This document shows positions 2,900 to 14,367 of a DNA stretch of 64,000 nucleotides, piece after piece. The notes beneath the pieces are model-generated. The model searched no databases, was not told where the DNA came from, and was given only the letters and a program-made list of their open reading frames with translations. This stretch comes from Wenzhouxiangella sp. XN201 (GTDB lineage: Bacteria > Pseudomonadota > Gammaproteobacteria > Xanthomonadales > Wenzhouxiangellaceae), in contig NZ_JAAIVI010000020.1 in the NCBI RefSeq assembly GCF_011008905.1, forward strand, positions 1 through 64,000, written 5' to 3'. Each line of letters starts with the position of its first letter. Within the stretch, counting starts at the first letter, position 1. A program made the translations under genes and the position numbers.

Positions 2900-3255
2900 G
2901 GCCGAATTCTCCGTCTCCGCTTCAAGTCCGCTCCCCATTATGATGCAGTGGGCGCCGTCGCTTATGTGCGGTACCGAACAGTCCGGCCCGGGAGGGGAGG
3001 TTATGGCCCGAGGCCTTCGCCCGCGGCGTGCTTGACTGAGTGTCGTCGATGCGATCGGTACGCCAAGTCGCAGCGGCGTCATCATTCGTATAGTGGCAGA
3101 CTATGAGAATAGCGCTGACATGGCCCCGTTGACAACGCTTTCGCGACGGATTTGTTAGTTTCCAGTGAAACCATCCGGGCGGGTCGTTGTCGGCTCCCTA
3201 GTACGCTGGTCCGGTGGCCGGCACCGATCAACGGATTCGAGAGGGCGGATACCCC
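2900..3255. promoter_or_regulatory. Divergent intergenic region between crp copy B and the RND operon
   Basis: A 356-bp stretch without a supported gene. On the plus strand a perfect TTGACA is seen at 3129-3134, with a weak -10 candidate about 18 nt later (TGTTAG, 3153-3158), which would drive the RND operon. No clear Crp-type TGTGA-N6-TCACA or Fnr-type TTGAT-N4-ATCAA site is visible by eye. Other small open frames here have no start signal or similarity. Confidence 0.4.
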
Positions 3256-4485
3256 GTGAGCACTGAAACACCTGCAGTCAGAAAAGACGATGACAATCGA
3301 CGCCTCAGGATCACCCTGCTGATCTGCGCCGCCCTGGTGCTAGGGGCCGCGATTCTGCTCTATCTCATCTTCAGTACGGAACCGACCGCGCGCCGCGACG
3401 GCGCCGTGCGCCAGACCGCCTCACTGGTCGATGTGGTGCAGGGTGAGTACGGCACGTTCAGGCCCACCATCGAGGCCATGGGCACGGTGCGACCGGCGCG
3501 GGAGATTTCACTGAGCGCGCGGGTCGAGGGCGAAGTGGTCTCCCTGGGAGATGGCTTCGAGCCCGGCGGTTTCGTCGATGCCGGTGAGTTGCTGGTGGCG
3601 ATCGACGAGGCCGACTATCGGATCGCCGTCGAGCAGCGCGGCAGCGCGCTCGAGCAGGCGATTGCCGAACTCGAGATCGAACGCGGCCAGCAACAAGCTG
3701 CACGTGCCGACTACGAATCCTTCAATCGCGAACTGCCGCCGGAGCGCCGCGCGCTGGTGCTGCGCGAGCCGCAGTTGCGCTCGGCCGAGGCGAACGTCGA
3801 ATCGGCCCGTGCCGATCTGCGGCAGGCCGAACTCGACCTGGAACGCGCCACCGTCGAGGCACCGTTTGCGGCCCATGTTCTCGACCGGGCGGTCAATGTC
3901 GGTTCGCAGGTCTCCCCGGGTAGCGAATTGGCCCGCCTGGTCGGCCGGGACACCTACTGGATCGAGGCGACTGTTCCGGTCACACGCCTGGCCTGGCTGA
4001 CGATTCCCGATGGCGAATCGCCGGGATCGCGCGTGGCCGTCCGCAATCGCAGTGCCTGGCCCGAGGGCGTGAGCCGCCAGGGCGAGGTGTTTCGCATGAT
4101 CGGCGAGCTCGAGGGCGATACCCGCCTGGCGCGGATTCTGGTTGCCGTCGACGATCCCCTGGCGCGCGCGGCCGATGCGGGAACGCCCCGCCTGATGCTG
4201 GGCGAATACGTTCAGTGCCTGATCGAGGGCCGCGAAATCACCGACGTCGTGCGCATCGAACGCGAATACATCCGCGCCGACCAGACCATCTGGCTGATGG
4301 CCGACGGGCGGCTGGTGATCCAGCCGGTATCGATCGTCTTCCAGGATGCGACTTATGCCTACATCGACGAGGGCTTAAGCGAAAACGACCGCGTCGTGAC
4401 CACGCGCCTGGCAACTGTGCGCGAGGGCCTGAGGCTGCGGGTCGAGGGCGATGAGGACGCCACCGGCGGAGATGTCGGCCCATGA
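3256..4485 (+). CDS. RND efflux periplasmic adaptor (HlyD/MFP family)
   Basis: 409 residues. One N-terminal membrane anchor ([20 protein letters not shown]) is followed by the barrel-sandwich half motif ([19 protein letters not shown]), a coiled-coil hairpin rich in E, A, Q and R (about 115-200), the second lipoyl half ([19 protein letters not shown]) and a beta-barrel. It links an inner-membrane RND pump to an outer-membrane channel in the periplasm. The GTG at 3256 has GAGAGG upstream and fits the family; another GTG at 3214 is possible. The stop overlaps the pump start (ATGA), so the two are translationally coupled. No outer-membrane factor gene is nearby, so a TolC-like protein encoded elsewhere is presumed. 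Substrate unknown. Confidence 0.9.
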
Positions 4486-7400
4486 GTTCGACGCCACCCG
4501 GTCCCGGCCCGAATCCCGGCGGGGCGATCGCATGGATGGCCACCCATCCGATCGCGGCCAACCTGGCGATGATCATCCTGCTTGCCGGCGGGGTGTACAC
4601 CGCCATCACCATGCAGAAGGAAGTCCAGCCGCGCTACGAGCTGGATTACGTCGACGTCAACGTGTCCTACCCGGGCGCGGCGCCGGAAGAGGTCGAGCAG
4701 GGCATCCTGCTGCCGGTCGAGGAAGCCGTTCGTGGCGTGCAGGGGATCAAGGAACTGACGTCGACGGCGCGCGAGGGGTCGGGATCGATCAATCTCGAGC
4801 TGGTTGCCGGCGTCAACCGCATGCGCGTCTACCAGGACGTCGACCAGGCGGTGGCCCAGATCCGTACCTTCCCGATTGATGCCGAAGAGCCGCGGGTGCG
4901 CCTGCGCTCGTGGCAGCGTGACGTCATGGAAATCGGCCTGTTCGGCGATATCGACATCTGGTCGCTGCGCCAGCTTGGCGAGCGGGTGCGTGACCGCCTG
5001 CTCAACAAGCCCAACATCACGCAGGTCGAGCTCGGCAATGTTCCGGCCTATGTCACGCATGTCGAGATCCCTCAGCAGACCTTGCGCGAGTACGGTCTGA
5101 CGCTCAGCGAGGTGGCCGACATCATCGAGCAGTCCAGCCGCGATGTGCCGGCCGGTGCCATCGACACCAGCCGGGGCGAGATCCTGCTGCGTCTGAACGA
5201 GCGCAAGGTGTGGGCGCGCGACATTGCCGACATTGTCATCGCCAGTTCCGAAAGCGGCGCAGCGCTGACACTGGGAGATATTGCCGAGGTGCGCGACGGC
5301 TTCGAGGAAGCCGGCTTTCACTCGCAATTCAATCGCCAGCCCTCGATCGAGATCGAGATCTTTCGCGTCGGCACGCAGTCGCCGCTGGATGTGGCCGAGT
5401 CGGTGGAGGAAGTGCTCGAGGAGCTCGATCACACCCTGCCGGAGGGCGTGAGCTGGCGCATCGATTCCAACCGGGCCGAGGAGTTCGGTGACCGACTTAA
5501 CCTGCTGCTCAAGAACGGGGCGCTGGCAATCGTCATCATCGTGCTGATCCTGGCGCTGTTCCTGGAGGCGCGCCTGGCCTTCTGGATCATGATGGGCATG
5601 ACCATTTCCTTCGTCGGCGCGATCAACTTCCTGCCGAGCCTGGGGATCAGCATCAACATGATCTCGATGTTCGGGTTCCTGGTGGCGCTCGGCATCGTCG
5701 TCGATGACGCCATCGTGGTCGGCGAGAATGTCTACGAGCAGCGCGAGCGCGGACTGAGCATGACCGATGCGGCCGTTGTCGGCGCCCGTGAGATGGCCTG
5801 GCCGGTGACCTTCAGCATCCTGACCAATATCGTCGCCTTCCTGCCGGTGATGTTCATCCCCGGCATCATGGGGCAGTACTGGTGGCCAATGCCGGTGGTG
5901 GTGGTGACGGTGCTGGCGCTTTCCCTGCTGGAGGCCCTGTTCATCCTGCCATCGCACCTGGCGAATATCCGCGAGCGCTCGCATGCGGCGGTGGGCGAGC
6001 GCCTGCACAACATTCAGCGCAGTTTCGCGCGCGGTGTGAGCAACTGGATCGAGACCCGCTACAAGCCGTTTCTGGAACTGAGCGTGCGCCACCGCTATGT
6101 CACGCTGACCGGAGCACTCGCGCTGCTTGCGGTCACCGGTGGGTACGCGCTCAGCGACCACCTGGGCATGATCATGATGCCCGAGCAGCCGGCCGACGAA
6201 ATCGAGGCCGGCGTTCGCCTGCCGGTGGGCACGACGCGCGATGTGGCCGCCGACATGGCCGCCCAGATCACCGAGGCCACGCACCGGATGTTCGAGGAGA
6301 ACGATCTGTACGAAGCAGCCGAGGGCATCAAGACCAACGTCCGCGGCCGAACCTTTATCGACGTCGAGATCGTGATGCTGCCGCCGGCCGAGCGCGACAT
6401 CAGTACGCAGGAAGTGATCGAGCTGTGGCGCGAACAGATTGGTGACATCAAGGGCGTCGATCAGATCACCTTCGAGGCCGAGCGCGGCCCGGGAAGCTGG
6501 CGCGACGATATCAGTATCGATCTCAGTCACAACGACATCGAGGTGATCGAGCGCGCCTCGGCGGAGCTGGTCGAACGCCTGGAAGCCTTCGGCAATACCC
6601 GTGACGTCAACGACAACTACGAGGCCGGCAAGGCGCAGCTCGATTTCACGCTATTGCCCGAAGGCAGGGCGCTCGGGCTAACGCCGGTGGCGGTCGGGCG
6701 GCAGTTGCGCGGCGCGTTCTACGGCGATATCGCGCTGCGCTACCTGCGCGGCACCAACGAAATCGAAGTGCGCGTCAAGCTGCCGGAAGAAGAACGTGAG
6801 GATATCCGCACGCTCGAAAACTTCATGCTCAGGACGCCCAACGGCGTCGAGGTGGCGCTGGCCGACGTCGCGCGGATCGAGGAAGGTCAGTCGTTCACCT
6901 CGATCAACCGCCGTGACGGGCGTCGCATCATCAATGTCGGTACCGACGTCGAGCCCAAGAGCGCGATCAGCCGGGTTCAGGCGGCTATGGATTCAGAGGT
7001 GATGCCGCAACTCCAGGCCGATTTTCCCGGCCTGACCTGGACTTATGAAGGCAGTAACCAGGAACTGCGTGAATCCACGGCTGCACTGTGGGGTGGCTTC
7101 GGCCTGGCCCTGTTCGCCGTCTACGCGCTACTGGCGATCGCCTTCAGCAGCTACATCCAGCCACTGATCGTGATGCTGGCCATTCCCTTCGGCATTGTCG
7201 GCGGCATCATCGGGCACATACTGCTGGGCTACGACCTGTCGCTGGTGAGTATGCTCGGGGTCGTCGCCGTGTCCGGCGTGGTCGTCAACGGTGCACTGAT
7301 CATGGTGCATTTTGCCAATCGCAAGCGGGGTGAGCTGTCGGCGCATGACGCCATTGTCGCCGCCGGCACGCGCCGCTTCCGGCCGATCGTGCTGACTACC

Positions 7401-7601
7401 GTGACCACTTTCGGCGGGCTGTCTCCGATCATCTTCGAGACTTCCCTGCAGGCCGTTCACCTGGTGCCGATGGCGATCTCGCTCGGCTTCGGCATCGTCT
7501 TCGCGACCTCGATCATGCTGGTGGTCGTGCCGTGCTTTTACATGATGCTCGAGGATATTCATGAAAGCATGCAGCGACGTCGCGCGCGCGGGTCGGCCTG
7601 A
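4482..7601 (+). CDS. RND efflux permease (AcrB/HAE-type)
   Basis: 1039 residues, full length for the family. It shows TM1, a large periplasmic loop, then TM2-TM6. TM4 carries the proton-relay acidic pair ([17 protein letters not shown]). A second periplasmic loop and TM7-12 follow ([28 protein letters not shown]). It is an inner-membrane, proton-driven drug/metabolite exporter working with the adaptor encoded just before it. The ATG overlaps the adaptor stop by 4 nt. The loop sequences are closer to uncharacterised HAE-like pumps than to E. coli AcrB, so the substrate cannot be read from sequence. A very long reverse-strand open frame across it (4359-6530) is a GC-rich shadow. Confidence 0.93.
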
Positions 7602-7771: not shown

Positions 7772-9058
7772 ATGGTTCAGCAGAATCAGTCCGCACCAAC
7801 CGAGACCGGCGCCACACTGGGCGATTCCGGGAAAAAGGACAAGAACCCCGACAAGGGCTATATCGCCCTGCTTGGCTGGAGCCTCAATGCCATCGACGCC
7901 ATGGCGCGATTCGACCGTCGCTATGTTGTCGTCGCGCCGTCGTGGGCGGCGGACTATGCCCGCGAGAACGACATCCCGTTCATCGAATGGGATTTCGAGC
8001 GGCTCAACGAGCGTTCGCTCGAGATCGCCGAGACCCTCAAGAAGGAGGGCGTGGATGTCTCGATCCCCTTGTTCGAGGAGGTGGTCGAATGGGCCGGCGC
8101 CATCAACTCGGTCCTGATGGACCAGCCGCGCCTGCACGGCCAGTCCGTGCTGTTTCGCGACAAGGCCCTGATGAAGCGTCGTGCGCACCTCGGCGGCATT
8201 CGTGTCGGGGTCTTCGAGGAAGCGCATGATCGCGACGATGTCTACCGCTTTTTGCGCCGCGTCAACCAGACCTTGCTCAAGCTCGACGGTGATCCCAACG
8301 ATCCGATTCACCTCAAGGCTTTCGACCAGGCCGGCTGTCTGGGCCATCGGGTGATTCGAAGGCCGCAGGAAATCGACACCATTCCGGACACGGATTTCCC
8401 GTTGCTGATGGAGTCCCACCTCGACGGCTGGGAGTTCGCCGTCGAAGCCTGGATTCACGACGGCGAGATCAAGTTCCTCAACATCTCCGAATACGTCACG
8501 CTCGGCTACTCGGTGTTCGTGCCGGCCACACCCGAACTTGAGAGCTGGCGGGACGCCATCACCAAGGAAGTCGAGAAACTGATCAAGGCCTTCGACATCA
8601 AGTTCGGGTTGATCCATCCCGAGTACTTCGTGACCGCCGACGGCACCATGTACTTTGGCGAGGTCGCTTATCGTCCGCCGGGTTTCAAGGCCTTCGAGCT
8701 GATCGAGCGCGCCTACGGATTCAACGCCTACCAGGCCACGGCGCTGGTGTTCGACCCCAAGTCGACGAAGGAAGAAGTCGACGCCTTCTTCCCCGAGCCG
8801 GTCAAGGGCGCCAAGGGCCATGCCGGTTGCTTCGGCGTGTTCCCGCGTCGGCGCGTGGTCAGCCAGCTGGCGTTCCCGGAAGAGACGGCCGAGCATCCGT
8901 ACTTCGAAAGCCACGAGCTCTATCCCCTGGAAGAAGAGGTGGTGGCCGAACGCGAAGCCTTCGGTACCCACTGGGGCCTGGTCTACTTCTTTGGCGATGA
9001 TCCGCACAAGATGCGGGATCTGCTCAAGCACCAGGAAGAGCTGGACTTTTATATCTAG
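7772..9058 (+). CDS. ATP-grasp superfamily ligase
   Basis: 428 residues. After a short polar N-terminus comes a Rossmann-like pre-ATP-grasp domain (KGYIALLGWSLNAIDAM, RYVVVAP), then the ATP-grasp fold: FRDKALMKRR (about 128-137), LLMESHLDGWEFAVEAWI, and the Mg/ATP-site strand with GEVAYRPPGFK (Glu297, Arg301), which corresponds to the E-x-N-x-R-x-G motif of carboxylate-amine ligases of the carbamoyl-phosphate/BL00235 type. Such enzymes make an acyl-phosphate with ATP and join it to an amine or amino acid. The substrate is unknown. AGGAGG 7 nt before ATG 7772 fixes the start. It is first in an operon with a Cys-His-Asn protein and a deacetylase, which suggests amide-bond chemistry on a polyamine-like or peptide substrate (inference). 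Confidence 0.85.
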   Translation: MVQQNQSAPTETGATLGDSGKKDKNPDKGYIALLGWSLNAIDAMARFDRRYVVVAPSWAADYARENDIPFIEWDFERLNERSLEIAETLKKEGVDVSIPLFEEVVEWAGAINSVLMDQPRLHGQSVLFRDKALMKRRAHLGGIRVGVFEEAHDRDDVYRFLRRVNQTLLKLDGDPNDPIHLKAFDQAGCLGHRVIRRPQEIDTIPDTDFPLLMESHLDGWEFAVEAWIHDGEIKFLNISEYVTLGYSVFVPATPELESWRDAITKEVEKLIKAFDIKFGLIHPEYFVTADGTMYFGEVAYRPPGFKAFELIERAYGFNAYQATALVFDPKSTKEEVDAFFPEPVKGAKGHAGCFGVFPRRRVVSQLAFPEETAEHPYFESHELYPLEEEVVAEREAFGTHWGLVYFFGDDPHKMRDLLKHQEELDFYI

Positions 9059-9074
9059 GAAACAGGGCTTCCCC

Positions 9075-9109
9075 GGGCCATAATCGCGGCATAAGGCCGC
9101 GATTGGCCC
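9075..9109 (+). promoter_or_regulatory. Strong intercistronic hairpin
   Basis: GGGCC (9075-9079), a 2-nt bulge, AATCGCGGC (9082-9090), loop ATAAG, GCCGCGATT (9096-9104), GGCCC (9105-9109): 14 paired bases around a 5-nt loop. It lies in the 69-bp gap between the ATP-grasp and papain-like genes. There is no T tract, so it may attenuate, protect the 3' end of the first cistron, or mark an RNase processing site rather than end transcription. Confidence 0.5.
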
Positions 9110-9127
9110 CGGCCCGAGAGCTCGCCA

Positions 9128-11140
9128 ATGGAGTACCAACGCTTGCAGGATTCATCCGGCAACGACAACCCGGACCTGGCCCGGGCCCAGGAACAATTCG
9201 AACATGCCCTCGAAAGCATCGCCCGGGTGACGGCGATTGCTCGGCCGGGGCATCTCCCGCGTCTGTTCAATGCCACGCTCAGGTTGCTCAAGCTGCCCGG
9301 TGGCGCTGAGCGGTTGCACGGCTATGCCGGGCGCTTCGATGAAGCCGGTGTATTCGAGGGCAGTGACTGGAATCATCCCGAACGGTTGCAGCCCGAGCTT
9401 TCTCGCGGCTCGCTGACCGGTGCGGTCGAGAGCGTGGCCGTGGAAGCCCTGAGCCGATTGCGCATGCTCGCCATCGCCGAAGGAACGTACGAACACCCCG
9501 AAGTGAGCGCCGACGACGCCCGCGACTTTCTGCAGCGCAGCCTGGTCTTCAACCTCGACTTGCTGCAGGCCGATCTTTCCGAGGCCGGGCGGACCGGCGC
9601 GGGTCAGCGCGAGGCTGTCCGGCAGCTGTTGTCGTTCGAGCTCGATCGGCTCGGCGGCACCAGCGTGATCGAAGCCCTGGTCGCCGAGGCCGATCGTGTA
9701 CTCGAGCAACGGCCGATCGACGTGGCAGTCCCGCGTCGCCTGCTCGGCCATGTCGAGCGCCTGCTCGAGCGGGAAAGCCTGCCCGACAGTGACGCGCTGC
9801 AGCGTGGTCGCAAGCTGCTGGCCGCCTACCGCGGGCCGACCGAGCTGACCCGCTCGGCGGTAGTGGATTGCGTGGCCGGTTTCGAGGCGATGTCGGAGGC
9901 CGAGCGTGACGAGGAACTGGCAGCCCTCGGGCAGTCCATGACCGAGACCGGCCTGGTCTGCCCGGCACACGGCGCCATCCTGACCCTGCTGGCCGAGTCC
10001 GGCAGTGACCGCCAGCTGAGCCTGGCCATGGACCTGGATTCGGTTGGCAGCGACAGTCTCGACGCATTCAATGCGCTGATCCGGACCCTGATCCGCGAAG
10101 CGGTCGGACCGGCGACTGCCCAGTGCATCCTGGGTTTAAGCAACCTGCTCGATCGGGGCATGCTGTTTTTTCCGCCGGTTCCGGGCGCGCTGTGGCGCCT
10201 GACCCGGCTCGAACCGTTGCCGGAGGTCTCGGCCCTCCTGCGCGAGGAATTCGCGCATGCCGATCCGCCGTCGGGTCACAGCCTGCTGCTGGCCGGCGTG
10301 ATCAGCGTGCTCGGACTGCCGCTGGGCGTGAGCCAGGGCAACAACCCTACCTGCCAGTCCGCCCGGGCCATCAGTCTTTGGGCGCAGGTGGATCCCGGCT
10401 TTCTGCTTGAGCTGGTGATGTGGGCCGCACGCGATGACGAGATCGACCTGCATTTCGAGGGCGACCTGATTCGCTCGAGTGAGCTGACCGAGGGCCTGAT
10501 CGAGAGCCTGCACACCGACCTCGACACGGTTTCGCTGGTGCTGGTGCCGCACCTCGACAAGATCTACTGGGAGATGGGACGGCGCATCGTTGGCCGCGGC
10601 GAGGACGGGCACCGCTGGATCAATCCCGAGTTCCATGGCTGGTGGGTGCACCGGAGTTTCGCCACCACCATCGACTACGCCACCGGCGCAGTCGTCGATT
10701 TCGCCGGTTTCATTCGACAGTTCTACGCCGCCTATCATCCCGACTACAACGGCGATGCCGAGCTGATCTACCCCCAGCCGGCCGGGATCGTCGCGACCGA
10801 TCCCTTCGGCGTCTACGTAGGCCTGCATGCCATCGCCATTCAGCGTGTCGCGCTCGACCCCGAAGGCGTCATGCGGGTCTACTTCTATAACCCCAACAAC
10901 GAGGGCCGACAGGACTGGGGGCAGGATATCGTCACCTCGACCAGCGGCCACGGCGAGATTCCCGGCGAGTCCTCGCTGCCGTTCGAGCAGTTCTGTGCGC
11001 GTCTCTACGTGTTCCACTACAACGAACGCGAACTCGGCGACCCGCAGACGGTACCCGACGAGGCGGTCGAGGCCATCGCCGAGAGCGTGCGCGAAAGCTG
11101 GGCCTGGGAGCGGGCCTGGCAGGAGGTGGTTCTGACCTGA
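9128..11140 (+). CDS. Uncharacterised protein with a predicted papain-like Cys-His-Asn triad
   Basis: 670 residues with no family I can name. The first ~330 residues are helical and rich in Leu, Glu and Arg. The C-terminal half holds, in order, GNNPTCQSARAISLW (Cys409), VGLHAIAIQRV (His567) and RVYFYNPNNEG (Asn588). A Cys at the head of a helix, then GxHAxxI on a strand, then a NPN turn about 21 residues later is the order and spacing of papain-like/transglutaminase-fold hydrolases. Hydrolysis or transfer on an amide bond is inferred, not shown. No signal peptide. A hairpin precedes it, and its TGA overlaps the ATG of the HDAC-like gene (TGATG), so the two are translationally coupled. The start has only a weak purine-rich site (GAGAG). 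Confidence 0.7.
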   Translation: MEYQRLQDSSGNDNPDLARAQEQFEHALESIARVTAIARPGHLPRLFNATLRLLKLPGGAERLHGYAGRFDEAGVFEGSDWNHPERLQPELSRGSLTGAVESVAVEALSRLRMLAIAEGTYEHPEVSADDARDFLQRSLVFNLDLLQADLSEAGRTGAGQREAVRQLLSFELDRLGGTSVIEALVAEADRVLEQRPIDVAVPRRLLGHVERLLERESLPDSDALQRGRKLLAAYRGPTELTRSAVVDCVAGFEAMSEAERDEELAALGQSMTETGLVCPAHGAILTLLAESGSDRQLSLAMDLDSVGSDSLDAFNALIRTLIREAVGPATAQCILGLSNLLDRGMLFFPPVPGALWRLTRLEPLPEVSALLREEFAHADPPSGHSLLLAGVISVLGLPLGVSQGNNPTCQSARAISLWAQVDPGFLLELVMWAARDDEIDLHFEGDLIRSSELTEGLIESLHTDLDTVSLVLVPHLDKIYWEMGRRIVGRGEDGHRWINPEFHGWWVHRSFATTIDYATGAVVDFAGFIRQFYAAYHPDYNGDAELIYPQPAGIVATDPFGVYVGLHAIAIQRVALDPEGVMRVYFYNPNNEGRQDWGQDIVTSTSGHGEIPGESSLPFEQFCARLYVFHYNERELGDPQTVPDEAVEAIAESVRESWAWERAWQEVVLT

Positions 11141-12255
11141 TGGCAGCACCGCTGGCGGTGGTTTATCACGACGAGATGCTCGAGCACCAGCCTCCGGGGC
11201 TGCAACCGGAGATGCGCGACTATCACTCGCGCCAGCTGCGTGCCCGGCTCGGTGAACTGGTTGCCAGCCAGATCTGGCTCCATCCCGAACGGCCCGAGCG
11301 CTTGTCATCGCTGGTCGAACACGTGCATGAAATCGATGACGGCAGCTTGCTGTGGCTGACGCCCGAGCGGGCCGATGAAACGACCGTCCGTCGCGCCCAC
11401 ACCGGCGGTCACATGCAGCGCCTCGACAAGCTCAGGGGGCGAAAGCGCATGCTTTCGATCGACTCCACGGCGGTATCACCGGGCAGTGTCGATGCCGCCT
11501 TTCGTGCCGCTGGTGCGGTCTGTACGGCGGTCGATGCGGTGTTCGATGGCCGGGCGGCCACTGCCTTCGCCCTGGTGCGTCCTCCGGGCCACCACGCCAA
11601 CGCGGCGCATTACCAGGGCTTCTGCCTGATCAACAACGTCGCTGTTGCGGCCCGGCATGCGATGGCCGTGCACGGCGTCGAGCGCGTGCTGATCGTCGAC
11701 TGGGACGTTCACCACGGCAACGGTACGGCCTCGATCTTCGAGGACGATCCGGATGTGCTTTTCTTCGATGTCCACCGCGGCGCACCCTGCTATCCCGGCA
11801 GCGGCGCGCTGGAGGATGTCGGACGGGGACGCGCGCGCGGCACGAATTTGAACGTGCCCCTGCCGGCCCAAACCGGCGACCTGGCGGTCCTGGAAGCATT
11901 CGATCGCATCCTGATTCCGGCGGCACGTCGATTCCAGCCCGGCTTGATCCTGGTCTCTGCGGGTTTCGACGGAACGCGCGAACACCTCGCCTGCAAGTTC
12001 AGCACGGAGCTCTTCGCGCATCTGACCGACCGCGTGCAGCGCCTGGCCGCTGAACTGTGCGACGGTCGCCTGGCCATGGCCCTGGAGGGTGGTTATCACC
12101 TCGAACCGATGCGCGAAGGGCTGGCCCACGGCCTGCGCATGCTCGGCAACCCCGGTTGTGAACTGCCGCCGCTGCAGCGCAGCCGCATCGGTCTCCCGGC
12201 CGTACGCGAAGCGGCCGATGCGCTGGCCGAGCGGTCTCCCCTGCTTCGGGACTGA
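11140..12255 (+). CDS. Class II histone-deacetylase-like / acetylpolyamine amidohydrolase
   Basis: 371 residues with the full deacetylase core: RPPGHH (catalytic His151/His152), GFCLINNVAVAA, DWDVHHGNGT (zinc ligands Asp189 and His191), SAGFDG (third ligand Asp277) and LEGGYHL (transition-state Tyr319). The family removes acetyl groups from lysine or polyamines in a zinc-dependent way; bacterial members are mostly acetylpolyamine or small-molecule amidohydrolases in the cytoplasm. All key residues are present, so it should be active. The start overlaps the stop of the preceding papain-like gene, indicating coupled translation and probably a shared pathway with the ATP-grasp ligase. The substrate is not known. 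Confidence 0.93.
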   Translation: MAAPLAVVYHDEMLEHQPPGLQPEMRDYHSRQLRARLGELVASQIWLHPERPERLSSLVEHVHEIDDGSLLWLTPERADETTVRRAHTGGHMQRLDKLRGRKRMLSIDSTAVSPGSVDAAFRAAGAVCTAVDAVFDGRAATAFALVRPPGHHANAAHYQGFCLINNVAVAARHAMAVHGVERVLIVDWDVHHGNGTASIFEDDPDVLFFDVHRGAPCYPGSGALEDVGRGRARGTNLNVPLPAQTGDLAVLEAFDRILIPAARRFQPGLILVSAGFDGTREHLACKFSTELFAHLTDRVQRLAAELCDGRLAMALEGGYHLEPMREGLAHGLRMLGNPGCELPPLQRSRIGLPAVREAADALAERSPLLRD

Positions 12256-12317: not shown

Positions 12318-12998
12318 TCAAGCCGGGCCGTCGCTCTCGGAATCGGGCTCGTTGTCCTGCTCTTCTTCCGATTCTTCGTTGTCGGTGTTGCCCTCGTCGG
12401 CCCCGGTGTCTTCTTCCTCTCCTTCGCCTTCGGCCTCGTCGGCTTCTTGTTCGGTCGCCGCATCCTCTTCCGGTGCGGGTTCGGGCTCAGGCTCCTCTTC
12501 GGGTTCGATCATCTCGCGGTATTCGCCCTCGGTCAGACTCGATGCGGTCTGCAGGAAGGCGGCGATGGTCCAGATCTCGTCGTCGCTCATGCGATCCTCG
12601 CCGCGTGCGGGCATGGCCGACATCTTGATGCCGTTGCGGGTGACCCAGAAGACGCCGGCCGGATCGGGCTGCCCCCGAGTGAGGGCCGGTGGCCGCGGTT
12701 CGAAGCTGTCGCTCGGATCCCGGCCGGGTCGGCCGTGACAGCCGGAACAGGAACCGTCGTAGGCAACCGCACCGGCCTCGATCATGCCGGTATCGTCGAG
12801 GTCGGGGACCTCGAGTTCGGCGGCCCGACGCTCGATCGAGCGATCGCGCAAGGTTTCCAGGTACCAATTGGTTACGGCCGTGTGACCTGATCCGACCGAC
12901 ACGTCGTAATGGCCGCTGAATGCATAAGCAATGGCGCCGCCGATGACGATGACGGCGAGAATGAGCACGGTTCGGATAAAGCGTCCGATCGCCTTCAT
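12318..12998 (-). CDS. Membrane-anchored monohaem cytochrome c with long acidic tail
   Basis: 226 residues. An N-terminal membrane anchor (VLILAVIVIGGAIAYAF) is followed by a periplasmic class I cytochrome c domain: CSGCHG (Cys84, Cys87, His88) and probable axial Met129 in KMSAMPA. The last ~65 residues are almost only E, D, P, A, G and S. GGAGG 7 nt before ATG 12998 sets the start; the in-frame extension to 13028 is unlikely. It probably shuttles electrons at the membrane, partner unknown. The acidic tail is unusual for this domain and might dock a basic partner or reflect adaptation to salt. It is transcribed divergently from the P1 peptidase. Confidence 0.88.
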   Translation of the reverse strand: MKAIGRFIRTVLILAVIVIGGAIAYAFSGHYDVSVGSGHTAVTNWYLETLRDRSIERRAAELEVPDLDDTGMIEAGAVAYDGSCSGCHGRPGRDPSDSFEPRPPALTRGQPDPAGVFWVTRNGIKMSAMPARGEDRMSDDEIWTIAAFLQTASSLTEGEYREMIEPEEEPEPEPAPEEDAATEQEADEAEGEGEEEDTGADEGNTDNEESEEEQDNEPDSESDGPA

Positions 12999-13146
12999 GG
13001 TTGTTCCTCCCTCGTATTGGACCACCATCTTAGCAACCCGTCAGGGCTTCCGCGAATGGGCGACACCGAGGGTAGACTGGTTGCCGGAACGGTCAACCCG
13101 TGACGCGTGCCGATTTTCGCATCCACACAATCCCTGGTGATCCGCG

Positions 13147-14367
13147 ATGTTGAGAGTGTTCTGCCTTCCGCTGTTTCTCGCTTGCCTGCTGATCCCGTCG
13201 CAGGCCAATGCCAGTGCGCCCCATGACGACAAGGGGCGCGCCCGTGACCTCGGGCTCTCGCCCGGCATTCTTACGCCCGGGCGCTGGAACGCCATCACCG
13301 ATGTGGCGGGCGTGGCGGTCGGTCACCACACCCTGATCGAGGGTGAGAGCATCCGTACCGGTGTCACGGCCGTGTTGCCACATGGTGCCAATCCCTACCG
13401 CGAGCGCGTGCCGGCGGCAGTGTATGTCGGCAACGGTTTCGGCAAGGCGGTCGGCTTCACCCAGATTCGCGAACTCGGCGAGATCGAGACCCCGATCGCC
13501 CTGAGCAATACGCTCAGCGTCTATCAGGTCGCGCATGGAGTGGCCGATTACGTACTCGAGCTGCCCGGCAACGAGGACGTGCGTTCGGTCAATGCCGTGG
13601 CTGGCGAGACCAACGACGGCTGGCTCAATGACATCCGTGCGCGGGTCATCGACGGCGACGCGGTCGCCAGGGCCATCGAGGCGGCCTCGTCCGGACCGGT
13701 GGCCGAAGGCAACGTCGGTGCCGGCACCGGCACGCGGGCGCTCGGCTTCAAGGCCGGTATCGGAACGTCGTCGCGGGTACTGCCGGCCGAACGCGGCGGC
13801 CACACCGTCGGGGTGCTGGTGCAGTCGAATTTTGGCGGAGTGCTGAGTATCGACGGCGTGCCGGTCGGCGAGCGCCTGGGTCAGCATTTCATGGTCGGGG
13901 AGGTGCCGTACGAACGACCTGCCAGCGATTCCGAGCCGGCCGATGAGCGCACGACCGGCTACGATCCGGATGTCGACGGTTCAATCATGATCGTCGTCGC
14001 CACCGACGCACCGCTGACCTCGCGCAACCTCGAACGTCTGGCCCGGCGCGCCATGCTCGGTCTGGCCCGCACCGGCGGATTTTCTTCCAACGGCAGCGGC
14101 GACTATGTGATCGCCTTTTCCACCCACGAAGCGGTGCGCATCCATGTCGATGATGCCGACGTTCGGACCGTCAGCGAGCTTTCGAACGCGGCCATGTCTC
14201 CGCTGTTCCTGGCCGTGGTCGAGGCCACCGAAGAAGCCATTCTCAACTCCCTGTTCATGGCCGAGACCATGACCGGTCACGAGGGGCGAACCATGCCGGC
14301 GATTCCGCTCGAAAAAGTGGTGCCGCTACTCGAAGCGCACGGTGCGATCGAGACCTCTGAACACTAA
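13147..14367 (+). CDS. P1-family peptidase (DmpA/BapA-like aminopeptidase), secreted
   Basis: 406 residues with a clear signal peptide (LPLFLACLLIPSQANASA). Family motifs follow: GILTPGRWNAITDVAGVAVG at the N-terminus, GNVGAGTGTRALGFKAGIG, and VDGSIMIVVATDAPL. Members are N-terminal-nucleophile enzymes that cut themselves between Gly and Ser; here that is Gly278-Ser279, and the new N-terminal Ser is the nucleophile. They release N-terminal D-, L- or beta-amino acids from peptides or amides. The export signal places it in the periplasm. It stands alone, divergent from the cytochrome gene and convergent with the two-component operon. Confidence 0.9.
   Translation: MLRVFCLPLFLACLLIPSQANASAPHDDKGRARDLGLSPGILTPGRWNAITDVAGVAVGHHTLIEGESIRTGVTAVLPHGANPYRERVPAAVYVGNGFGKAVGFTQIRELGEIETPIALSNTLSVYQVAHGVADYVLELPGNEDVRSVNAVAGETNDGWLNDIRARVIDGDAVARAIEAASSGPVAEGNVGAGTGTRALGFKAGIGTSSRVLPAERGGHTVGVLVQSNFGGVLSIDGVPVGERLGQHFMVGEVPYERPASDSEPADERTTGYDPDVDGSIMIVVATDAPLTSRNLERLARRAMLGLARTGGFSSNGSGDYVIAFSTHEAVRIHVDDADVRTVSELSNAAMSPLFLAVVEATEEAILNSLFMAETMTGHEGRTMPAIPLEKVVPLLEAHGAIETSEH

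What the first reader, a model, noticed from the sequence alone, without database searches (positions are those of the whole stretch)
7772..12255. Operon of ATP-grasp ligase, papain-like protein and HDAC-like amidohydrolase
Seen: three same-strand genes, the last two joined by TGATG, with amide-bond-forming (ATP-grasp), possible amide-cleaving/transferring (Cys-His-Asn) and deacetylating (complete HDAC core) capacities. Known: ATP-grasp plus a Cys amidase is the logic of glutathionylspermidine synthetase/amidase, and bacterial class II HDAC-like enzymes act on acetylpolyamines. Inference: this could be an unrecognised pathway that makes and removes a conjugate of a polyamine or similar amine. 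The middle protein has no family I recognise.
Basis: partly seen in the sequence, partly recalled or inferred. Interest (0 to 1): 0.75.

Follow-up and report, generated by a model that had tools for sequence, protein, structure and literature searches.

The report
Three-gene amide module in salt-loving bacteria
Three neighbouring genes, for an ATP-driven ligase, a new family of probable cysteine enzyme and a deacetylase, turn up together in many unrelated bacteria, and those tested also carry genes for a salt protectant, which points to an undescribed pathway that makes or trims a small amide.

Summary
The operon is real: ATP-grasp ligase (lig, 7772-9058), a 670-residue protein (mid, 9128-11140) and an HDAC-fold amidohydrolase (dac, 11140-12255).

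It is not lineage-specific. In 369 Gammaproteobacteria genomes mid occurs in 13, and full-length lig in the same 13 and no others. Dac hits at E<=3e-78 lie in 12 of these 13 and in none of the other 356; they form one clade. Over all whole-genome searches, 38 of 38 mid genomes have lig and 27 of 36 have this dac. All three sit side by side in four families outside Wenzhouxiangella. "One pathway" is well supported.

Mid has no significant Pfam, NCBIfam or PDB match. Its C-terminal domain keeps Gln-x5-Cys...His...Asn in 38 of 38 aligned copies, the papain order, but the fold is unconfirmed.

The polyamine idea found no support. Salt did: ectoine synthase is in 22 of 22 module genomes tested against 7 of 42 others, and in one genome ectC lies 104 bp behind lig.

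Best reading: a ligase / cysteine acyltransferase-or-amidase / deacetylase module of salt-adapted proteobacteria, perhaps handling an N-acetylated diamino acid. Linkage is near certain; chemistry is inferred.

The parts
7772..9058 (+). lig: 428-aa ATP-grasp ligase, the best conserved member of the lig-mid pair
   Evidence: ORF; RBS; ATP-grasp_4 sub-threshold in the window protein, 21 of 22 members at E<=0.001; profile hits L-amino acid ligases 4wd3/3vot and 4dim; E284, E297, R301 invariant in 22
9059..9127 (+). lig-mid spacer with a strong hairpin (possible attenuator; conservation not tested)
   Evidence: strand folding on 9056-9127: -35.4 kcal/mol, z -2.6, 3 of 200 shuffles as stable
9128..11140 (+). 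mid: 670-aa protein of a family not in the libraries searched; helical N-terminal part (about 15-395) and conserved C-terminal domain (about 398-670) with Q403, C409, H567, N588
   Evidence: no significant family or PDB sequence match (only scattered weak hits in 46); invariants; models
11140..12255 (+). dac: 371-aa Zn-dependent HDAC-fold amidohydrolase of a module-associated subfamily; start codon overlaps the stop of mid (TGATG), so probably coupled in translation
   Evidence: PF00850 E 9.5e-86; PDB class II HDACs; one clade 100/97; TGATG

Best explanation
The three genes are one conserved metabolic module of salt-adapted Proteobacteria. Shown: they co-occur and cluster. Inferred: lig activates a carboxylate with ATP and joins it to an amine, as L-amino acid ligases do; mid is a cysteine acyltransferase or amidase of a new family, working like a papain-type enzyme, that acts on the same amide; dac removes an acetyl (or similar acyl) group from the amine partner, either supplying the free amine or recycling the product. 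The likeliest substrate class is a small N-acetylated (di)amino acid or peptide used in osmoadaptation, by analogy with the NAGGN osmolyte operon, which also combines an amide-forming enzyme, an asparagine-synthase-like enzyme and a peptidase. Separate confidences: one module 0.93; lig an amide ligase 0.8; dac an active deacylase 0.8; mid a Cys enzyme 0.7; a salt-related role 0.6; an acetyl-diamino-acid or peptide osmolyte 0.2.
For: Co-occurrence: mid 13 of 369, full-length lig in the same 13, dac at E<=3e-78 in 12 of those 13 and 0 of 356 others; relatives: mid 15 of 61, lig in all 15 plus one fragment in G022; nine further genomes from the phylum sample have lig, 9 of 9; two more in another class have lig beside mid. 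Dac subfamily is one clade in a 61-row tree (100/97). Lig and mid adjacent in 38 of 47 mid-bearing loci (36 by script, plus L060/G002 and L112/G600). Dac touches the pair in G239, G404, G318 and G600, all outside Wenzhouxiangella. Invariant Q-C-H-N in 38 of 38. Ectoine synthase in 22 of 22 module genomes tested against 7 of 42 others (Fisher 2e-11, not corrected for kinship; the 42 were picked by me from the class sample, not at random); ectC 104 bp behind the lig stop in G318. GNAT acetyltransferase next to dac in G229, G336 (by clustering with G229's) and G581 and next to mid in G033; Sir2 deacetylase beside lig in G336 and two genes from lig in G229.
Against: Dac is missing in 9 of the 36 mid genomes tested for it (G219, G799, G436 and six relatives, some of them incomplete), so it is accessory. 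In 15 of the 27 genomes that have it, it is not next to the pair, and its neighbours share nothing between families except some GNATs. One genome without the module, G271, has a weaker HDAC hit (36%, E 1.7e-49) that also starts in the N-terminal extension and was not put in the tree, so the subfamily boundary may not be perfect. Seven of 42 module-free genomes have ectC, so ectoine and module are separable; ectoine may only mark a salty habitat. Only 22 of 38 module genomes were tested for ectC. The ectC linkage is a single case on a 5.6-kb contig. The catalytic domain of mid did not fold with confidence (mean pLDDT 47), and its best structural matches are not significant (E 0.25 or more). No substrate is known.
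Confidence: 0.42

Rival explanations
1. Protein modification system: lig attaches an amino acid or peptide to one conserved cellular protein, mid (helical N-terminal part plus cysteine peptidase-like domain) binds and trims it, dac deacylates lysines on the same target.
For: Lig is far better conserved than mid: median pairwise identity 77% against 44% over 35 loci, and higher in every pair compared, as expected if lig must fit a conserved target. The N-terminal part of mid is all-helical and several of its weak structural matches are ARM/HEAT proteins. HDAC and Sir2 neighbours are classical lysine deacylases.
Against: Closest lig relatives of known structure include small-molecule L-amino acid ligases. 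The structural matches of the helical part are not significant (E 0.07 or worse). No target gene was recognised in the neighbourhoods.
Confidence: 0.25
2. Polyamine-conjugate pathway: lig makes an amide of a polyamine, mid hydrolyses or transfers it, dac deacetylates acetylpolyamine.
For: Same logic as glutathionylspermidine synthetase/amidase; dac is related to class II HDACs that include the polyamine deacetylase HDAC10; sub-clusters annotated ApaH exist in gammaproteobacteria (PMC11532494, passages), and whether dac belongs to one was not tested.
Against: No family match of lig or mid to the Gsp enzymes. The dac loop that carries HDAC10's gatekeeper (recalled) has a two-residue gap. No polyamine gene recognised among the 30 neighbours scanned.
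Confidence: 0.1
3. Ecological passengers: the genes are exchanged together among halophiles for unrelated reasons, and no joint pathway exists.
For: Patchy distribution with multiple copies in G483, G546 and G581 suggests transfer; the module genomes tested share a salty-habitat marker.
Against: The co-occurrence holds when lig and mid are 57 kb apart (G345) and when dac is unlinked; the seven ectC-positive genomes without mid also lack full-length lig and the dac subfamily.
Confidence: 0.06

Closest known systems
[quoted passage not shown] 4wd3)
   Same: Shared ATP-grasp region with the two acidic residues and Arg (HPE...GEVAxRPPG against HTE...IEVGARIGG)
   Different: Profile alignments cover only 114 and 149 residues at E 1e-5 and 2e-6; lig forms a sharply bounded family (next-best in the class sample E 9e-18, partial)
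NAGGN osmolyte operon (asnO-ngg-peptidase, PA3459-PA3461; PMC8070244, passages read)
   Same: Small operon that makes an amide osmolyte: a GNAT-family protein that also forms the peptide bond, an asparagine-synthase-like enzyme, a peptidase; osmotically controlled
   Different: No homology found: lig has no NAGGN synthetase model among its NCBIfam hits at E<=1; here dac and a different Cys enzyme take the partners' places. That Ngg carries an ATP-grasp domain and AsnO a catalytic Cys is recalled
Glutathionylspermidine synthetase/amidase (PDB 2IO7, CHAP amidase; PMC10318531, passages)
   Same: Amide-forming ligase paired with a papain-fold Cys enzyme
   Different: No family match on either side; separate genes; an added HDAC
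BtrH acyltransferase (papain-like, PF14399; PMC10318531 passages; PMC2922099 passages)
   Same: A papain-like acyltransferase; its partner BtrJ, an ATP-grasp ligase, is recalled
   Different: Mid does not match PF14399; the trio holds no carrier protein
Bacterial class II HDAC-like amidohydrolases (HdaH, ApaH, DmhA, PrpH; PMC11532494 passages)
   Same: Same fold and full catalytic motif
   Different: A clade of its own among the 61 rows compared, with an N-terminal extension of about 45 residues and a two-residue gap after GFD; the enzymes of that paper were not in the tree
DoeB, N-alpha-acetyl-diaminobutyrate deacetylase (PMC3187862 passages)
   Same: Deacetylase acting in ectoine turnover of a halophile
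   Different: Aspartoacylase/M14-related family, not HDAC; acts on the alpha and not the gamma isomer

Membership tests
ATP-grasp carboxylate-amine ligases | Sequence match to ATP-grasp models | tested here: met
   PF13535 in 21 of 22 members at E<=0.001, window copy 25 bits against cut-off 27; PDB profile hits
ATP-grasp carboxylate-amine ligases | Acidic residues and Arg of the ATP/Mg site conserved (roles recalled) | tested here: met
   E284, E297, R301 invariant in 22 of 22, aligned with 3vot
ATP-grasp carboxylate-amine ligases | Forms an amide with ATP | not testable with these tools
   needs purified enzyme
Papain-like Cys superfamily (mid) | Cys at the N-terminus of the core helix, His on the next strand, third polar residue on the following strand (criteria in PMC10318531, section 6 read) | tested here: inconclusive
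   Q403/C409/H567/N588 invariant in 38 of 38; the low-confidence model has Cys at the start of a helix, His in a strand and Asn just after the next strand
Papain-like Cys superfamily (mid) | Significant fold or sequence match to a known member | tested here: not met
   13 of the top 14 Foldseek hits are named cathepsin B or staphopain, but E is 0.25 or more and TM 0.08-0.20; no sequence match. Hence not filed as a member
HDAC/arginase-fold Zn amidohydrolases (dac) | PF00850 domain with the HH, DxH, D and Y motif | tested here: met
Polyamine deacetylase (HDAC10 type) | Glu gatekeeper in the loop after GFD (recalled) | tested here: not met
   two-residue gap in that loop in all 22 subfamily rows aligned with 4 outgroup rows; HDAC10 itself was not in the alignment
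Glutathionylspermidine synthetase/amidase | Gsp synthetase and CHAP amidase domains | tested here: not met
   no match of lig or mid
NAGGN synthesis operon | Ngg and AsnO homologues | tested here: not met
   none of lig's NCBIfam hits at E<=1 is that model, and mid has none
Anti-phage defence systems | Match to PADLOC models | tested here: not met
   0 matches at E<=0.1 for the three proteins

The most novel reading that the evidence does not exclude
A hitherto unseen branch of osmolyte metabolism in salt-adapted Proteobacteria: dac is the missing deacetylase of N-gamma-acetyl-diaminobutyrate (the EctC substrate, which DoeB does not accept) or a similar N-acetyl diamino acid; lig couples the diamino acid to a second amino acid; and mid, founder of a new cysteine-enzyme family, transfers or hydrolyses the resulting amide, so that cells switch between ectoine and a peptide-type solute.
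Probability: 0.15. Interest if true: 0.85.

Novelty: new variant of a known kind. Interest (0 to 1): 0.62.

Why it matters
A ligase and a partner protein outside all families searched are found together in each of the 38 mid-bearing genomes that could be searched whole, and a matching deacetylase is present in 27 of the 36 tested for it. A Halomonas strain carries the pair, and that genus includes industrial ectoine producers. The module would add a new cysteine-enzyme family, give a function to a bacterial HDAC clade, and make a new salt-related metabolite directly findable by knock-out metabolomics in easily grown, harmless bacteria.

Tried and rejected
Two AlphaFold2 jobs (full length, 49/56 C-terminal domain), each with the ten sequences that the tool admits: the helical part is confident, the catalytic domain is not. 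Foldseek of both models gave nothing significant. PDB sequence searches with mid alone and with a 38-row profile: no hit. Viral contigs: no relative of mid. Common neighbours: of 20 genes scanned near the pair (Mqo, TPP enzyme, ammonium transporter, mechanosensitive channel, ROK kinase, GST, MFS and others) and 10 scanned near the 17 fetched unlinked dac loci, none recurs between families except acetylation enzymes; the GNATs next to dac and mid did not cluster together except G229 with G336 (same genus), so this is a weak hint. Upstream RND pump genes (3214-7601) recur directly upstream in L020, L021 and L023, with a contig-edge piece in L019, all near relatives, so I do not count them to the module. 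Defence-system reading: no PADLOC match. Literature: none of ten search listings showed a description of the module; subscription papers are not covered, and Iyer et al. 2009 on amidoligases was seen only in a reference list.

Dac was not searched in G851 and G923. The genomes behind L026 and L027, whose fetched stretches show mid but no lig, were not searched. Kinship was not corrected for in the Fisher tests.

Full report
What is there. The window's genus is that of Wenzhouxiangella sediminis: genome G003, placed in the same genus, has its match at the same coordinates on a 72,684-base contig as the record that names so. Lig has a good ribosome-binding site before ATG 7772. The lig-mid spacer is about 70 bases and folds into a strong hairpin (z -2.6). 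Mid and dac overlap in TGATG.

Families. Lig is an ATP-grasp protein: PF13535 is under its cut-off in the window copy but is found in 21 of 22 members at E<=0.001. A profile of 22 ligs finds 4dim_A and the L-amino acid ligases 4wd3 and 3vot. Dac is a complete HDAC domain. Mid matches nothing in Pfam, NCBIfam or PDB at useful significance.

Is mid an enzyme? In 38 C-terminal domains from many families, Q403, C409, H567 and N588 are invariant. The Gln-to-Cys spacing of six residues and the order Cys-His-Asn are those of papain (recalled). Many other polar residues are invariant too (H475, D477, D493, H495, H537, N590, E610, E614), so the choice of a triad is not forced. The full-length model gives a confident helical N-terminal part; its structural matches, several of them ARM/HEAT proteins, are not significant. 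The C-terminal model is poor (mean pLDDT 47) but puts Cys at the start of a helix, His in a strand and Asn just after the next strand. Of Foldseek's first 14 hits 13 are named cathepsin B or staphopain, all with E of 0.25 or more. I take this as a hint only, and do not file mid as a papain-family member.

Does the trio belong together? The class sample of 369 Gammaproteobacteria genomes was searched with each gene. Mid: 13 genomes. Lig: 17 genomes at E<=1e-10, of which 13 have the full-length family (E 9e-213 or better) and four have weak partial matches (E 9e-18 to 4e-13); the 13 are exactly the mid genomes. Dac: 115 genomes have some HDAC at E<=1e-40. Hits at E<=3e-78, which all start at query residue 1-7, lie in 12 of the 13 mid genomes and in none of the other 356; the next hit is E 4e-69 and starts at residue 48. 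G219 is the mid genome without one. Against a clean boundary, one genome without the module (G271) has a weaker hit (36%, E 1.7e-49) that starts at residue 4; it was not placed in the tree. A tree of 61 HDAC rows (two rows and identical copies dropped) puts the 28 subfamily rows on one side of one branch with support 100/97. The 13 mid genomes fall in ten families, and at least three of these (f1, f14, f182) also hold genomes without mid.

Further samples. Relatives: mid in 15 of 61; lig in the same 15 plus a 207-residue piece in the 65%-complete genome G022; subfamily dac in 9 of the 15 (two other genomes pass E<=1e-60 with hits that start at residue 48). Phylum sample: mid in 11 of 398, nine of them new, all nine with lig, seven with subfamily dac (not G799, G436). 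Class of G436: mid in 3 of 190, the two new ones with lig next to mid. In all, 38 of 38 searched mid genomes have lig (13 + 14 further relatives + 9 + 2), and 27 of the 36 tested have subfamily dac (12 + 8 + 7). The Halomonas sp. PA16-9 replicon also has lig directly before mid. Two named contigs, L026 (Natronospira MAG) and L027, show mid without lig on the stretch fetched; their genomes were not searched.

Arrangement. Of 47 mid-bearing loci, 36 have lig within 1.1 kb by script and two more by coordinates (L060/G002; L112/G600). Nine do not: L026, L027, G345 (57 kb apart), and extra mid copies in five genomes that have an adjacent pair elsewhere (one copy listed twice, L052 and L120). Orders seen: lig-mid-dac (Wenzhouxiangella, G239), mid-lig-dac (G404), mid-dac-lig-ectC (G318), dac convergent with mid and lig divergent from it (G600). 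The same genes in different orders fit functional linkage better than one inherited block. In 15 of the 27 genomes with subfamily dac it is not next to the pair. Lig is strikingly better conserved than mid: median 77% against 44% identity over 35 loci, and lig is higher in every pair.

Salt. Ectoine synthase (PF06339 over cut-off) is in 22 of 22 module genomes tested (of 38 known) and in 7 of 42 other genomes of the class that I picked for the same search (an eighth, G125, is below cut-off). Eighteen of the 22 have ectA, ectB and ectC together on the stretch fetched. G483, G546 and G581 show ectC without ectAB nearby, and G318 has its only ectC match 104 bases behind the lig stop codon, on a 5.6-kb contig. 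The window's own genome has ectABC about 78 kb from the module. Kinship and habitat were not controlled, so this may mean only that the module lives in halophiles.

Acetyl theme. A GNAT gene abuts dac in G229 and G336 (same genus; the G336 gene named by clustering with G229's) and in G581, and follows mid in G033, which has no clear subfamily dac; a Sir2 protein deacetylase lies beside lig in G336 and two genes from it in G229. GNATs are common genes, so this is suggestive only.

Mechanism. Shown: gene linkage, conserved catalytic residues in lig and dac. Inferred: lig makes an amide; dac deacylates its amine partner or product; mid cleaves or transfers the amide through Cys409. The best functional analogue is the NAGGN osmolyte operon, under osmotic control (PMC8070244, passages), without homology. 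In Halomonas elongata N-gamma-acetyl-diaminobutyrate is not a DoeB substrate (PMC3187862, passage); an HDAC-type enzyme on that compound is an easily tested idea. The high conservation of lig also fits a rival, modification of a conserved protein.

The polyamine reading finds no support here. No description of the module showed in the ten literature listings.

Noticed in passing
window 12318-13028 (-) and 13147-14367 (+): A cytochrome c and a family S58 peptidase (DmpA-like by family, recalled; possible signal peptide by eye) lie behind dac; the S58 gene recurs near the module in four other Wenzhouxiangella loci (L022, L023, L025, L062).
   Followed up: partly
window 3214-7601 (+): An RND efflux adaptor and permease directly upstream of lig, conserved upstream of the module in L020, L021 and L023.
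   Followed up: partly
window 9059-9127: Strong inverted repeat between lig and mid (-35.4 kcal/mol, z -2.6); might set a lower level of mid than lig.
   Followed up: partly
G000:C17:570185-571210 (L225): The window's genome has a second, unlinked copy of the module-type dac that groups with copies of another family (G546, G581) and not with its own module copy.
   Followed up: partly
G483, G546, G581 (L101-L111): One genus carries three mid copies and two or three lig copies per genome, some of them unpaired, suggesting diversification within the module.
   Followed up: no
L019:3702-3776: In one Wenzhouxiangella MAG the similarity to dac stops after 25 residues behind an intact mid; decayed or misassembled gene.
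   Followed up: no
L182 (G000:C20:82392-98772): The window's Wenzhouxiangella genome has ectABC, although PMC7691419 (one passage seen) calls ectoine genes unique to strain AB-CW3 among the Wenzhouxiangella it compared.
   Followed up: partly
L053:3717-5425 (G318): An ectoine synthase gene without ectAB on the contig lies 104 bp behind lig on the same strand; the role of solitary ectC genes is called unresolved (PMC5924519, passages).
   Followed up: partly
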